NCBI RefSeq assembly: GCF_000424625.1
Contig: NZ_AUKG01000002.1
Coordinates: 1-64,000 of the forward strand
Source: Conexibacter woesei Iso977N
Lineage (GTDB): Bacteria > Actinomycetota > Thermoleophilia > Solirubrobacterales > Solirubrobacteraceae
Length of the DNA stretch: 64,000 bases
Reading direction: 5' to 3'
This document shows, one piece after another, positions 48,392 to 54,184 of this stretch. Each line of letters begins with the position of its first letter. The stretch's first letter is position 1. The notes beneath the pieces were generated by a model, which searched no databases, was not told where the DNA came from, and saw only the letters and a program-made list of their open reading frames with translations. Both the position numbers and the translations under genes were made by a program.

Positions 48392-49090
48392 CTAGAGCGC
48401 GACGTCCCTGGTGACGCCGCCGCGCGTCACCCGCAGCGTGCGGCCCCGGAACGCCTGCTCGCCGGCACCGACCACGAGGAACGTCCCGTCCGGGGCGATC
48501 GGCACCGGCGCGTCGCCGCGGGTCATCCGCAGCGCGGTCACCGACCGGTCGGCGATCCCGTACAGCACCGCGCGTGCGCCGTCGCCGGTCGCCATGCTCC
48601 GCGTCCAGAGCAGCAGCGGCTCGCGGGCGGGCACGCCGCACATCGCGCCGGGCGGGCTCGCGTCGTAGGCCGCGAAGCGCCCGTCCTCGACGCGGCCGAC
48701 GCGGTCGCCGACCAGGCGGCCGGGCACCACGCACGTCGCACCGTTGGTGTTCTGATAAGTCAGCAATCCCCAGCGAGCGCCGGCCACGCTCGGATCTTCG
48801 GTCGACGCGCGGGCCAGCCGCCGATCGGCGGGTGCCTGCCGCACCTGGGCGCCGCCGTCGCGGCCGGTGAGCGTCGTGCCGTCGTCGCCCGTGAAGACCT
48901 TGGTCCCGACCGCGAACCCGCCGCCGACGACCAGGAAGCCGAGGACCGCGCCGAGGACCGGGCCGGGGATCAGCTGCAGCCTGCGTCGCCGCTGCACCTG
49001 ACGGTCGAGCCTCGCCTTGCGCGCTCCGGCCACGCGGAACTGCTCGTACAGCTCGTGCGACGAGCGGCGGTCCGGCGGGATGTCGCTCAC
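48392..49090 (-). CDS. Putative ECF-associated membrane protein (anti-sigma-like)
   Basis: 232 aa from a GTG overlapping the sigma gene stop (GTGA). About 40 basic cytoplasmic residues precede one transmembrane helix (IPGPVLGAVLGFLVVGGGFA). The outer part, about 90-232, has two cysteines (GATCVV, AMCGV) and is clearly homologous to the exported protein at 50215-50841: compare GATC-x5-R-x-VG-x3-GRV and GARAVLYGIADRSV. Position directly after a sigma gene and the topology suggest an anti-sigma or signal-transfer protein, although no zinc-binding anti-sigma motif is seen. Confidence 0.75.
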   Translation of the reverse strand: MSDIPPDRRSSHELYEQFRVAGARKARLDRQVQRRRRLQLIPGPVLGAVLGFLVVGGGFAVGTKVFTGDDGTTLTGRDGGAQVRQAPADRRLARASTEDPSVAGARWGLLTYQNTNGATCVVPGRLVGDRVGRVEDGRFAAYDASPPGAMCGVPAREPLLLWTRSMATGDGARAVLYGIADRSVTALRMTRGDAPVPIAPDGTFLVVGAGEQAFRGRTLRVTRGGVTRDVAL

Positions 49091-49710
49091 GTCAGCGAAC
49101 CCTCGGCGGACCTGAGGCCGTCGATGATCCTCGCGAGATCGCGCAGCGCGCGCGACACACGGATCCGTACCGCGCCGGGACTGGCACCGAGCAGCTCACC
49201 GATCTCATCGTATGGGCGATGTTCGACGACCCGCAAGCGCAGCACCTCGCGCTGATCGGCCGACAGCGAGGCGAGCGCGCGCTCGAGGACCGGGCGGAAG
49301 CGTTCGAGGTCGGCGAGGTCCTCGATCCGGTCGAACTCCTCGGGGGCCAGCCGCGGGGCGGCGGCGCCGATCCGCTCGAGGTTGCGGCGCTCGACCCGCC
49401 CGCGGTCCCTCCAGCGGTAGAGCTGGTGGCGGGCGATCGTCCACATCCACTGGCGCCCCTCGTCCTCGGTCGTGCCGCGGAAGGCCTCGATCGACGCCAG
49501 CATCTCGGCGAACGTCTCGGCCATCAGGTCGAACGCGGCCTCGGGATCGAGCGTCTGGCGGGCGAGGTACTTCAGCACCACGTCGTGGTAGGCGAGGTAC
49601 ACGTCGCCGAACGTGCTCGGGTCGCTCCGGGCCCGGACGAACAGCGAGGATGGGTGGTGGCCCACCCGCCGGCGCAGGCTGCCGCCGCGCGTCCGGCGCG
49701 TCGAGATCAC
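49087..49710 (-). CDS. ECF sigma-70 factor
   Basis: 207 aa from a GTG at 49710. Region 2 covers about 35-100 (VYLAYHDVVLKYLARQTLDP, then GRQWMWTIARHQLYRWRDRG) and region 4 about 140-195 (LERALASLSADQREVLRLRV, then YDEIGELLGASPGAVRIRVS). It is a two-domain extracytoplasmic-function factor. It is coupled to the membrane protein downstream and diverges from two exported-protein genes, a likely regulon. The 115-bp gap to 49826 should hold its own type of promoter; TTGAAA at 49762 is one candidate -35. Confidence 0.92.
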   Translation of the reverse strand: MISTRRTRGGSLRRRVGHHPSSLFVRARSDPSTFGDVYLAYHDVVLKYLARQTLDPEAAFDLMAETFAEMLASIEAFRGTTEDEGRQWMWTIARHQLYRWRDRGRVERRNLERIGAAAPRLAPEEFDRIEDLADLERFRPVLERALASLSADQREVLRLRVVEHRPYDEIGELLGASPGAVRIRVSRALRDLARIIDGLRSAEGSLT

Positions 49711-49825
49711 GCCGGAACCATCTCAGACGAGGAACCTTCGGCGGAGAAGAGTTGCGCAGCGTTGAAACAACTTCGTGCGTTCTCGCCCTATTCCACCACC
49801 CCCGATGGAATGGAGCGTTTCCCCG

Positions 49826-50212
49826 ATGTCCCACCGCACGGGCATGTCCCGCGGCGTGCTGTTGCTCGCCCTCATCTGCGCCGTCAGCTTCGGCGCCGTC
49901 GTCCGCGTCGCCCTGGCGGGTGACAACAACCACGTCACCTGCGTCGAGCACGGCTTCTACTCGGGCGACAACAACAACGACTCGAGCTTCTTCGCCCGCG
50001 TCTACCAGGGGTGCAGCGCGACCCACCGCTACTGCGGTCTCTTCACCGCGACCGGCGGCTTCATCGGGTCCAGCGACAACTACAACAGCACCGGGACCTG
50101 CAACACGTGGTCGCGGGACTCCACCAGCAGCGCGAACGAGTGCAGCGCCGTCGCGGAGCTCAGCGACGACAACGTCTTCTCCTACCACCCGCACGCCTCG
50201 ACGGGGTGCTGA
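49826..50212 (+). CDS. Small secreted Cys-containing protein
   Basis: About 128 aa from the ATG at 49826 (an in-frame ATG at 49805 is possible). Residues 1-30 form a signal peptide (MSRGVLLLALICAVSFGAVV, cleaved near ALA-GD). The mature part, rich in Asn, Ser and Asp, has six cysteines (VTCVEH, QGCSAT, RYCGLF, GTCNTW, NECSAV, C-terminal STGC), enough for three disulfides. No family recognised. It is followed 2 bp later by the gene for an exported protein whose paralogue sits in the divergent sigma operon. Confidence 0.72.
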   Translation: MSHRTGMSRGVLLLALICAVSFGAVVRVALAGDNNHVTCVEHGFYSGDNNNDSSFFARVYQGCSATHRYCGLFTATGGFIGSSDNYNSTGTCNTWSRDSTSSANECSAVAELSDDNVFSYHPHASTGC

Positions 50213-50214
50213 GC

Positions 50215-50841
50215 ATGCTCCGGCGCGTGAAGTTCCTGGTCGCGTTCGTCGCGGCGATCCTGCTCGGCGTGGCGTTCGCCTCGGCCGTGATGGGCACGAC
50301 GACCCCGGACACGCCGCCCGGCCCGGCGGCGCTGGAGCCGGACGGCAGCGGCGCGACGATCGCCGCGACCGCGAGCGACCCGGCCGCGGGCCTGGCGCGC
50401 TCGGCGTCGCCGGCGCGCTGGGCGGTGCGCGTCTACCGCTCGGAGACCGGGGCGACGTGCCCGGACGTCAACCGCACCGTCGGCGGCGACTACGGCCGCG
50501 TCGACGGCGACGGCTCGTTCCACCCGCTGGCCCTCGACGCGGCGGGCTCGTGCGTCGACCTGACGGCGGCGCACCCCTACGAGCTGGTCGTCCGCCACCT
50601 GCCGGCCAACGACGAGCGCGGCGCGCGGGCGATCGTCTTCGGCGTCGCGACGTCCGGCGTGGCGTCGATCACGCTGACCGTCGACGGCGCCGCGCGCGCC
50701 GTGCCGGTCGACAACGGCGCGTTCGTGGCCCCGCTCGCCGAGGACGACATCGGCGCCACGTCGGCCACGTTCACGCTCGCGGACGGCACGCAGGAGACGC
50801 ACGCGTTGCGTGCCGACCCCGCGCTGGCCAACCAGCCATAA
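50215..50841 (+). CDS. Exported protein paralogous to the ECF-linked membrane protein
   Basis: 208 aa. An N-terminal signal/anchor helix (FLVAFVAAILLGVAFASAVM) is followed by a Thr/Pro/Ala linker and a domain of about 140 residues with two cysteines. That domain aligns with the outer part of the protein encoded at 48392-49090 (GATC, GRV, GSC, GARAIVFGVATSGV, then a Val/Gly-rich end). Its gene is 2 bp after the Cys-rich secreted protein gene. A shared ligand or competition with the membrane paralogue for it is inference. Confidence 0.75.
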   Translation: MLRRVKFLVAFVAAILLGVAFASAVMGTTTPDTPPGPAALEPDGSGATIAATASDPAAGLARSASPARWAVRVYRSETGATCPDVNRTVGGDYGRVDGDGSFHPLALDAAGSCVDLTAAHPYELVVRHLPANDERGARAIVFGVATSGVASITLTVDGAARAVPVDNGAFVAPLAEDDIGATSATFTLADGTQETHALRADPALANQP

Positions 50842-50874: not shown

Positions 50875-51189
50875 ATGGCGGCGATCTCACAGCGGACGCT
50901 GGACCTGGCGGGTGGTTTGATGGACCCGCTGCGCCTCCGCGTCCTGCTGGCGCTGGACGACCGGCCGAGCACGGCGACGCAGCTGGCCCGGGCGCTCGAC
51001 GCGCCCTACGACAAGGTCAACTGGGCGGTCAAGCAGCTGGTCAAGGGCGGTCTCGCTGAGCTCCGGGCGGTCGAGCCCGGGGCCAGCGGGATGGTCATGC
51101 AGAAGGTGTACGCGGCCCGCCATCGTGGCTGGGCGGCGTTGGTCCCGGCGCTCGACGCCATCGCGGCGAACCCGGCACCCGAACGTTGA
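50875..51189 (+). CDS. Small winged-helix regulator
   Basis: 104 aa with AGGAGG 10 nt before the ATG, one of the few strong ribosome sites here. The sequence is a single ArsR/helix-turn-helix-20-like domain: LMDPLRLRVLLALDDRPSTA, DKVNWAVKQLVKGGLAEL, then a wing. It resembles the N-terminal part of the protein at 2818-3282. It may belong to the exported-protein operon 33 bp upstream. It overlaps the convergent zinc-ribbon gene by 95 bp. Confidence 0.8.
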   Translation: MAAISQRTLDLAGGLMDPLRLRVLLALDDRPSTATQLARALDAPYDKVNWAVKQLVKGGLAELRAVEPGASGMVMQKVYAARHRGWAALVPALDAIAANPAPER

Positions 51190-52426: not shown

Positions 52427-54184
52427 CTACGCCGCGAGGCGCAGCGCAGGGGGTTCCTCACCGTGGTCGAGGCCTGGGGCCAGCGGCAGGAACAGGTCGG
52501 CCAGCGCGGGGTCGAAGTGCGTGCCGCGCAGCCGGACGATCTCGGCCAGCGCGTCGTCGAGCGTCCAGGCGTCCTTGTACGGGCGCTTGGAGCGCAGCGC
52601 GTCGAAGACGTCGCAGATCGCGACGATCCGGCCCGCGAGCGGGATCTCCTCGCCGCGCAGGCCCGCCGGGTAGCCGCTGCCGTCCCACTTCTCGTGGTGG
52701 GTGCGGGCGATCTCCTCGCCGAGCTGGACCAGCGGCGACGGCGACCCGCTCAGCATCGACGCGCCGATCGCGGCGTGCGTCTGCATGATCGCCCACTCCT
52801 CCGGGTCCAGCTTGCCGGGCTTGAGCAGCACGCGGTCCGGGATGCCGATCTTGCCGACGTCGTGCAGGACCGACGCGTGGCGCAGCGTCTCGGCGTCGCG
52901 CGCGCTGAGGCCCGCGGCCAGCGCGAGCTGCTCGCACAGCACGCCGATGCGCTCGACGTGCTCGCCGGTGTCCTCGTCGCGCCACTCGGCCGCGCGCGCC
53001 AGGCGCCGCACGACCTCCAGCTGGGTCTCCTCGAGCTCGGCGGTGCGCTCGCCGACCGCGCGCTCCAGCGCCGCGTTGTGGCGCGAGACGCGGTGGCGCT
53101 CGCGGCGCTCGGTCAGGTACGAGGCGGTGGTCGTCCCGACGGCGCTCAGCGCCAGGCCGCACAGCGGCGCGACGACCGGCAGGACCCAGCCGCGCAGGAA
53201 CGCGACGTAGGCGACGCCGACGTAGAGGACGCCGAGCAGCGGCGCGAGCACGACGGCCAGCGTGCGCAGCCGCAGCGCGGCGACCGCGGGGGCGAGCGCG
53301 AGCAGCAGCAGCGCCAGGACGCTCGCCCAGCCCGGCGCGGTCCGCAGCGGCAGGCCGTGCAGGACGGTCCAGAGCGCGTTGGCCTGGACCTCGGGGCCCG
53401 ACATCAGCTCGTCGCCGATCGTCGGCGTGGGGTGGACGTCCTGCTCGGTCGGCGCGGTCATGCCGACGATCACGACCTTGCCGCGCACCGCGCTGGCGGC
53501 CAGCCTGTGGTCCTTGACGTCGGAGAAGTGATAGGCCTTGATCGTGCCGGGCGGGCCGCGGAAGTCGATCCACGCGCCGGACTTCTCGAACGCCTGGTCG
53601 TTGACCGGATGGCCGAGCGCGCGCGCCGCGGCGACCGCGATGGTCGGGACGCCGTCGCGCGTCGGCTCCATCCGCGCGATCTCGCCGCCGGCGAGGATCG
53701 GGAACGTCGCCATCGCGGCCTGCGCCCTGACGCGCGCGAGGTTCTCGTCGCCGCCGAGCACGTTGGTGTGCCCGTGCTCGTCGGTCTCGGTCGTCGCGAG
53801 GATCGTCCCGGGGAAGCGGCCGATCGCGTCGTACAGCGCCAGGTCCTGCTTGGGCTCGGAGGCCTCGGTGAACTGGACGTCGTAGATGACCTTCTTGGCG
53901 CCGAGCCGGCGCAGCTCGTCGATGACCTGGCCGTGCCAGGAGCGCGGGTAGGGCCAGCGCTGGGTCCCGGCGTAGTCGGAGAACGTCTCGGCGTCGATGC
54001 CGACGATCGCGATGTCCCTGGGCGTGTGCGCCGGGCGGATCCGGAAGCGCAGCGAGACCGTCGTGTCCTCCAGCGACCGCGCGCTGTGCGTCGCCCACAG
54101 CGCCACGCCCGCCAGCGCCGCGACGACCCCGGCCAGCAGGACGGCGCGCGCGTGGACCGGCCAGCGACGGGGCGAGAGCGACAT
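52427..54184 (-). CDS. CHASE2 sensor with HD-GYP phosphodiesterase domain
   Basis: 585 aa. One N-terminal helix, then a CHASE2 extracytoplasmic domain (about 35-285; IAIVGIDAETFSDYAGTQRW, VVIVGMTAPTEQDVHPTP), three transmembrane helices (about 288-360), a coiled-coil linker and HD-GYP (about 400-575). The HD-GYP has HASVLHDVGKIGIPD and HHEKWDGSGYPAGLRGEE with IPLAGRI, all residues for a metal-dependent cyclic di-GMP hydrolase. It senses an outside signal to lower c-di-GMP. It lies 6 bp after the FecR-type gene, a common CHASE2 partner. Confidence 0.95.
   Translation of the reverse strand: MSLSPRRWPVHARAVLLAGVVAALAGVALWATHSARSLEDTTVSLRFRIRPAHTPRDIAIVGIDAETFSDYAGTQRWPYPRSWHGQVIDELRRLGAKKVIYDVQFTEASEPKQDLALYDAIGRFPGTILATTETDEHGHTNVLGGDENLARVRAQAAMATFPILAGGEIARMEPTRDGVPTIAVAAARALGHPVNDQAFEKSGAWIDFRGPPGTIKAYHFSDVKDHRLAASAVRGKVVIVGMTAPTEQDVHPTPTIGDELMSGPEVQANALWTVLHGLPLRTAPGWASVLALLLLALAPAVAALRLRTLAVVLAPLLGVLYVGVAYVAFLRGWVLPVVAPLCGLALSAVGTTTASYLTERRERHRVSRHNAALERAVGERTAELEETQLEVVRRLARAAEWRDEDTGEHVERIGVLCEQLALAAGLSARDAETLRHASVLHDVGKIGIPDRVLLKPGKLDPEEWAIMQTHAAIGASMLSGSPSPLVQLGEEIARTHHEKWDGSGYPAGLRGEEIPLAGRIVAICDVFDALRSKRPYKDAWTLDDALAEIVRLRGTHFDPALADLFLPLAPGLDHGEEPPALRLAA

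What the first reader, a model, noticed from the sequence alone, without database searches (positions are those of the whole stretch)
48392..50841. ECF sigma locus whose membrane protein and divergent exported protein share a domain
The outer domain of the sigma-coupled membrane protein (GATC-x5-R-x-VG-x3-GRV, then GARAVLYGIA) recurs in the exported 208-aa protein encoded with a six-Cys secreted protein on the other side. A secreted paralogue of the sensor domain could compete for, or present, the same signal: a possible new surface-signalling circuit.
Basis: partly seen in the sequence, partly recalled or inferred. Interest (0 to 1): 0.65.

Follow-up and report, generated by a model that had tools for sequence, protein, structure and literature searches.

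The report
Sigma-factor sensor with secreted twin domain
A soil-type actinobacterium and its relatives (Solirubrobacteraceae) pair a stress-type sigma factor with a membrane sensor built from an undescribed beta domain, and the same domain recurs in exported proteins encoded beside the sensor or fused into it, which points to a lineage-specific surface-signalling system that has not been studied.

Summary
The outer domain ("D") of the sigma-linked membrane protein (48392-49090, -) and the exported 208-aa protein (50215-50841, +) are homologous (BLASTP E=3e-12; own-genome E about 1e-8), and AlphaFold gives both the same strand order. D has no Pfam, NCBIfam or PDB-sequence match. In this genome all 11 D copies lie at six ECF loci. 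Of 134 D ORFs fetched from Solirubrobacteraceae, 87 lie directly behind an ECF gene and 27 are the second D gene behind one. D is almost absent outside this family. In a common layout the membrane protein has two D domains and a following exported protein two more; elsewhere all four are fused in one protein, in matching order, without a second membrane segment. So exported and membrane-bound D domains are linked parts on the same side. The six-Cys protein is always followed by an exported D gene (9 of 9 genomes); in five the ECF pair is adjacent. Against a sister species sigma is 90% identical, the sensor D 43%. Best reading: a minimal anti-sigma sensor modulated by an exported Cys/His-rich protein plus D. 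Ligand and sign of the effect are unknown. New variant of a known kind.

The parts
49087..49710 (-). ECF sigma factor (Sigma70 r2 + r4_2); exact start uncertain
   Evidence: TIGR02937 E=1e-23
48392..49090 (-). Single-pass membrane protein, presumed anti-sigma/sensor, 232 aa; 4-nt overlap with the sigma gene
   Evidence: placement directly behind an ECF gene in 87 of 134 D ORFs
48974..49066 (-). Cytoplasmic helix, residues 9-39, candidate minimal anti-sigma segment
   Evidence: AlphaFold helix 9-39 at pLDDT about 76-87; amphipathic segment conserved in TM proteins; cytoplasmic part plus TM 75% identical in G001 against 43% for D
48905..48961 (-). Transmembrane segment, about residues 44-62
   Evidence: sequence; 79 of 82 TM proteins with one or two D domains have a 19-residue hydrophobic stretch before D
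48398..48820 (-). Extracytoplasmic D domain of the membrane protein
   Evidence: (E=5.8e-38, profile made with it)
49826..50212 (+). Secreted Cys/His-rich protein, 128 aa, six Cys in the mature part, A-x-A after the signal sequence
50215..50841 (+). Exported 208-aa protein, signal sequence with conserved ASA[VLI], one D domain
50404..50799 (+). D domain of the exported protein
   Evidence: (E=8.7e-43, profile made with it)
49763..49790 (+). ECF-like promoter candidate TGAAAC-N17-CCCTA before the Cys-rich gene; only match in the genome
   Evidence: consensus resemblance only
49784..49817 (+). Leader inverted repeat (ATTCCA-N10-TGGAAT core) next to the ribosome-binding region of the Cys-rich gene
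   Evidence: z=-2.07 here, -0.68 in G001, not the predicted fold in G005

Best explanation
This is an ECF sigma/anti-sigma signalling locus with a split extracytoplasmic sensor. The membrane protein holds the sigma factor at the membrane through its short cytoplasmic helix and exposes one D domain outside (an Ig-like half plus a beta-meander half carrying two conserved Cys). The divergent operon exports a Cys/His-rich protein (probably three disulfides) and a second D domain. Proposed working: the exported D and the Cys/His-rich protein bind an external cue, or each other, and contact the D domain of the membrane protein, which changes its hold on the sigma factor; released sigma then transcribes its targets, possibly both divergent operons. 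Shown: D homology, shared strand order, exclusive siting of D at ECF loci in this genome, conserved gene order, tandem-versus-fused D layouts, fast divergence of the outer parts against a conserved sigma. Inferred: sigma binding, D-D contact, ligand, release step, regulon.
For: D homology (E=3e-12) and same strand order in two AlphaFold models. All 11 D copies of the genome lie at six loci that carry a Pfam-detected ECF. In 94 regions, 87 of 134 D ORFs are first and 27 second behind a sigma ORF, median gap 311 bp; most of the other 20 are at contig ends or are the exported partners of Cys-rich genes. S>TM(2D)>exported(2D) alternates with S>TM(4D): in the careful tree domains 1-4 of the fusions tend to fall with TM2d1, TM2d2, EX2d1, EX2d2 (support for positions 2-4 is moderate), and the fusions have no hydrophobic stretch between d2 and d3 (8 of 8) while 22 of 23 separate exported proteins have their own leader. 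The Cys-rich gene is followed by an exported D gene in 9 of 9 genomes and lies beside the ECF pair in 5, four divergent and one co-directional. Exported and membrane D domains of these loci split before the species did. Against G001: sigma 90%, cytoplasmic part plus TM 75%, sensor D 43%, exported protein 56%, Cys-rich 55%.
Against: No known anti-sigma domain is found in the membrane protein, so its role rests on position, topology and constraint. Four of nine Cys-rich/exported-D pairs have no ECF in the 9-13 kb read, so the pair may act without this sigma. The fusion evidence concerns the two-domain exported proteins, not this one-domain exported protein itself. No regulon motif was found.
Confidence: 0.5

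Rival explanations
1. The exported D protein and the Cys-rich protein are outputs of the sigma factor: surface or matrix proteins built from the same binding domain as the sensor, which detects the same target, as in RsgI/SigI of Clostridium thermocellum. There is no direct contact between exported and membrane D.
For: Known precedent: the RsgI6 sensor module resembles the xylanase Xyn10D (PMC4711584). The divergent layout suits co-regulation. Cys-rich/exported-D pairs exist without an ECF in four genomes.
Against: Fusion of the exported-type domains into the sensor protein in other loci argues for a joint complex. In this genome D occurs nowhere except at ECF loci.
Confidence: 0.28
2. The exported D is a decoy that competes with the membrane D for the ligand and damps the response (negative feedback), as the first reader suggested as one option.
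For: Same domain, exported by an operon next to the sensor.
Against: Exported and membrane D form separate lineages and have diverged from each other to 33% identity, which is more than a simple competitor needs. Fused forms in the sister layout would not work as decoys.
Confidence: 0.1
3. The membrane protein is not an anti-sigma factor but an ordinary surface protein whose gene happens to lie behind the sigma gene.
For: No Pfam or NCBIfam anti-sigma domain.
Against: 87 D ORFs sit directly behind a sigma gene; 4-nt overlap here; conserved cytoplasmic helix plus basic stretch plus TM; cytoplasmic part far better conserved than D.
Confidence: 0.1

Closest known systems
CnrYXH of Cupriavidus metallidurans (ECF sigma, short-domain anti-sigma, separate periplasm-facing sensor)
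   Same: ECF sigma, membrane anti-sigma with a short cytoplasmic segment, and a separate extracytoplasmic sensor protein at the same locus (PMC7689651, PMC8103513).
   Different: CnrX is a helical-bundle membrane protein, not a homologue of the anti-sigma factor's own outer part; here the exported partner is an all-beta homologue of the sensor domain itself, and a Cys/His-rich secreted protein is added.
SigI/RsgI biomass-sensing systems of Clostridium thermocellum
   Same: The outer domain of the anti-sigma factor is homologous to domains of secreted proteins, and paralogous systems exist in one genome (PMC4711584).
   Different: SigI is not an ECF factor; RsgI domains are known carbohydrate-binding or glycosidase folds; here D is undescribed, occurs only at ECF loci in this genome, and can be split between the sensor and an exported neighbour.
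Canonical ECF/membrane anti-sigma pairs (RpoE-RseA, SigW-RsiW, BldN-RsbN)
   Same: Sigma gene followed by a single-pass membrane protein with a cytoplasmic N-terminus.
   Different: No recognisable class I domain; class II or III not testable by sequence here; extra exported homologues of the sensor domain.

Membership tests
ECF sigma factors | Sigma70 regions 2 and 4 present | tested here: met
   Pfam PF04542, PF08281 and NCBIfam TIGR02937 over cut-off
ECF sigma factors | Assignment to one of the 157 published ECF groups | not testable with these tools
   the group models are not held; only general ECF models match
Membrane anti-sigma factors of ECF systems | Gene directly behind the sigma gene | tested here: met
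   4-nt overlap here; 87 of 134 D ORFs in the family
Membrane anti-sigma factors of ECF systems | Single TM with a cytoplasmic N-terminal sigma-binding segment | tested here: inconclusive
   conserved helix plus basic stretch plus TM; topology and sigma binding not shown
Membrane anti-sigma factors of ECF systems | Known anti-sigma domain | tested here: inconclusive
   no Pfam match to an anti-sigma family in 17 N-terminal segments; short class II or III segments may escape sequence search
Membrane anti-sigma factors of ECF systems | Binds and inhibits its sigma factor | not testable with these tools
   needs an experiment
CnrYXH-type systems | Extracytoplasmic sensor is a CnrX-type helical bundle | tested here: not met
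   D is all-beta in both models
SigI/RsgI systems | Sigma factor of the SigI type with an RsgI N-terminal domain in the partner | tested here: not met
   the sigma matches ECF models; no RsgI-type Pfam match in the partner
Ig-like domains | Ig-like sandwich fold over the whole domain | tested here: inconclusive
   only the C-terminal half aligns (best Z 9.0 over 69 residues for the exported D, 5.8 for the membrane D), which may be a common arrangement

The most novel reading that the evidence does not exclude
Solirubrobacteraceae run a family-wide ECF signalling class in which the sensor is assembled in trans from one to four copies of an undescribed domain, some on the anti-sigma factor and some on exported partners; in the variant here a fast-evolving Cys/His-rich secreted protein acts as ligand or metal-binding co-sensor, which would make it a self-made extracellular signalling circuit.
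Probability: 0.3. Interest if true: 0.75.

Novelty: new variant of a known kind. Interest (0 to 1): 0.58.

Why it matters
ECF factors are the largest family of alternative sigma factors, and 102 of 157 ECF groups have no studied member (PMC8103513). Here a whole lineage uses an uncatalogued sensor domain that also occurs as exported partners. If the exported copies modulate the sensor, ECF sensing would include anti-sigma factors that work with soluble homologues of their own sensor domain, which can be tested with a few purified domains and one reporter.

Tried and rejected
Pfam and NCBIfam on all proteins: no family for D, the TM protein or the Cys-rich protein. PDB by sequence: nothing for D, only weak matches for the Cys-rich profile (best E 0.057). 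Foldseek: nothing at E<=0.001 for either model; the MHC/Fc/CD1 rows are the common Ig-like sandwich, not kinship. A genome-contig scan with the single membrane protein found nothing; with a conserved alignment of first D domains it found 23 loci. Recent duplication of sensor into exported protein rejected: exported D of window, G001, G005 and G047 group together (96/89), apart from the membrane D of the same loci. A genus-wide trait rejected: four of six genus-mates held (G002, G003, G004, G006) have no Cys-rich gene, two of them being incomplete assemblies. Promoter-based regulon search: the TGAAAC-N15-18-CCCTA pattern occurs once, at this locus. No paper found on such ECF systems in this lineage.

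Full report
Observation. The window is G000:C2:1-64000 of a 5.7-Mb genome with 73 Sigma70_r2 matches. The locus has two operons back to back. On the minus strand an ECF sigma gene (49087-49710) overlaps by 4 nt a gene for a 232-aa membrane protein (48392-49090). On the plus strand a gene for a 128-aa secreted six-Cys protein (49826-50212) is followed after 2 nt by a gene for a 208-aa exported protein (50215-50841). The outer domain of the membrane protein and the exported protein align at 33% identity, E=3e-12, and find each other in the whole genome at E of 4e-9 to 8e-9. I call the shared domain D.

What D is. Neither D nor the Cys-rich protein has a Pfam, NCBIfam or convincing PDB-sequence relative. 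AlphaFold models of the exported protein (pLDDT 81) and the membrane protein (pLDDT 80) give all-beta domains with the same order of strands. The C-terminal half resembles an Ig-like sandwich; the N-terminal half holds two Cys that are at least 90% conserved in the alignments. No structure matches as a whole; the structural matches are at the level of a common arrangement and show no function.

Where D occurs. A profile of D finds 11 copies in this genome, all at six loci next to an independently detected ECF sigma gene. In the family it occurs in 46 of 146 genomes. A sample of 399 genomes of the class gave 31 genomes of this family and one of a sister family. Named relatives are Patulibacter, Conexibacter and Solirubrobacter, so the family corresponds to Solirubrobacteraceae (inference from these names). 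In 94 regions, 134 D ORFs were classified: 87 directly behind a sigma ORF, 27 second behind one, 20 others, of which nine touch contig ends and seven are exported partners of Cys-rich genes. These regions were chosen because they hold D, so the figures describe D genes, not sigma genes. The sigma profile was trained on four of these loci; the own-genome result rests on Pfam and is independent.

Layouts. The commonest multi-domain layout is sigma, then a TM protein with two D domains, then an exported protein with two D domains. In other genomes one TM protein has four D domains (L081, L109, L115, L117 twice, L145, L151, L154). In the tree the four domains of the fusions tend to fall with domains 1 and 2 of the TM protein and domains 1 and 2 of the exported protein, in order; support is strong for position 1 and moderate for the others. 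The fusions have no hydrophobic stretch between d2 and d3, whereas 22 of 23 separate exported proteins start with one. The exported domains and the sensor domains therefore lie on the same side and probably act in one pathway. This is fusion evidence for the sister layout and holds only by analogy for the locus here.

The four-gene variant. The Cys-rich family occurs in 9 of 146 genomes and is followed by an exported D gene in all nine. The ECF pair is adjacent in five: the window, G001 and G005 (same genus) and G047 divergent, G045 with all four genes in one direction. In G066, G011, G049 and G137 no ECF was found in the 9-13 kb read. Four Cys and four His are invariant in the nine proteins; the two other Cys are both absent in G066, which suggests that they pair. 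The careful tree puts the exported D of window, G001, G005 and G047 together (96/89), and the membrane D of window, G001 and G005 together (99/93), so the two copies are old and were kept together. Between the window and G001, whose flanking genes are collinear at about 70-89% identity, sigma is 90% identical, the cytoplasmic part plus TM 75%, the exported protein 56%, the Cys-rich protein 55% and the sensor D 43%. The cytoplasmic part follows the sigma factor and the outer parts run free together, as expected of an anti-sigma factor with a fast-evolving outside partner or ligand.

Mechanism. Most likely the membrane protein is a minimal anti-sigma factor: an amphipathic helix with a basic stretch, one TM, one D outside. 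No known anti-sigma domain is recognised, so sigma binding is inferred. The exported pair most likely acts on the outer D as co-sensor or ligand carrier. That they are instead regulon products that share the sensor's binding domain, as with RsgI modules and cellulosomal enzymes (PMC4711584), cannot be excluded and is the chief rival. CnrYXH (PMC7689651) is the closest precedent for a separate outer sensor protein, but there the sensor is a helical bundle and membrane-bound.

Verdict. It is a new variant of ECF/anti-sigma signalling, nearly restricted to one family of actinobacteria. No paper on it was found in the library searched; most subscription journals are missing from that library.

Noticed in passing
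window 49784-49817: Inverted repeat in the leader of the Cys-rich gene, identical over about 30 nt with G001; G005 has a differing but again complementary TTCCG/CGGAA pair at the same place. It lies at the ribosome-binding region; the fold is only weakly better than shuffles.
   Followed up: partly
L191, L192, L193, L194: Cys-rich/exported-D gene pairs without any ECF gene in 9-13 kb, so the pair can exist apart from the sigma factor.
   Followed up: partly
L117 (G119:C42:1-12500): Three ECF-D loci in a row on one strand, two of them with four fused D domains; further sigma matches follow.
   Followed up: no
L129 (G136:C1:3844600-3853000): A D gene directly behind an ECF that is interrupted by an in-frame TGA, a decayed copy or a sequencing error.
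   Followed up: no
window 50875-51189: Small winged-helix (HTH_20) gene right behind the exported-D gene; kept at the same place in G001, not seen in G005. It may or may not belong to the circuit.
   Followed up: partly
window 52427-54184: CHASE2 plus HD-domain signalling protein about 1.5 kb beyond the locus.
   Followed up: no
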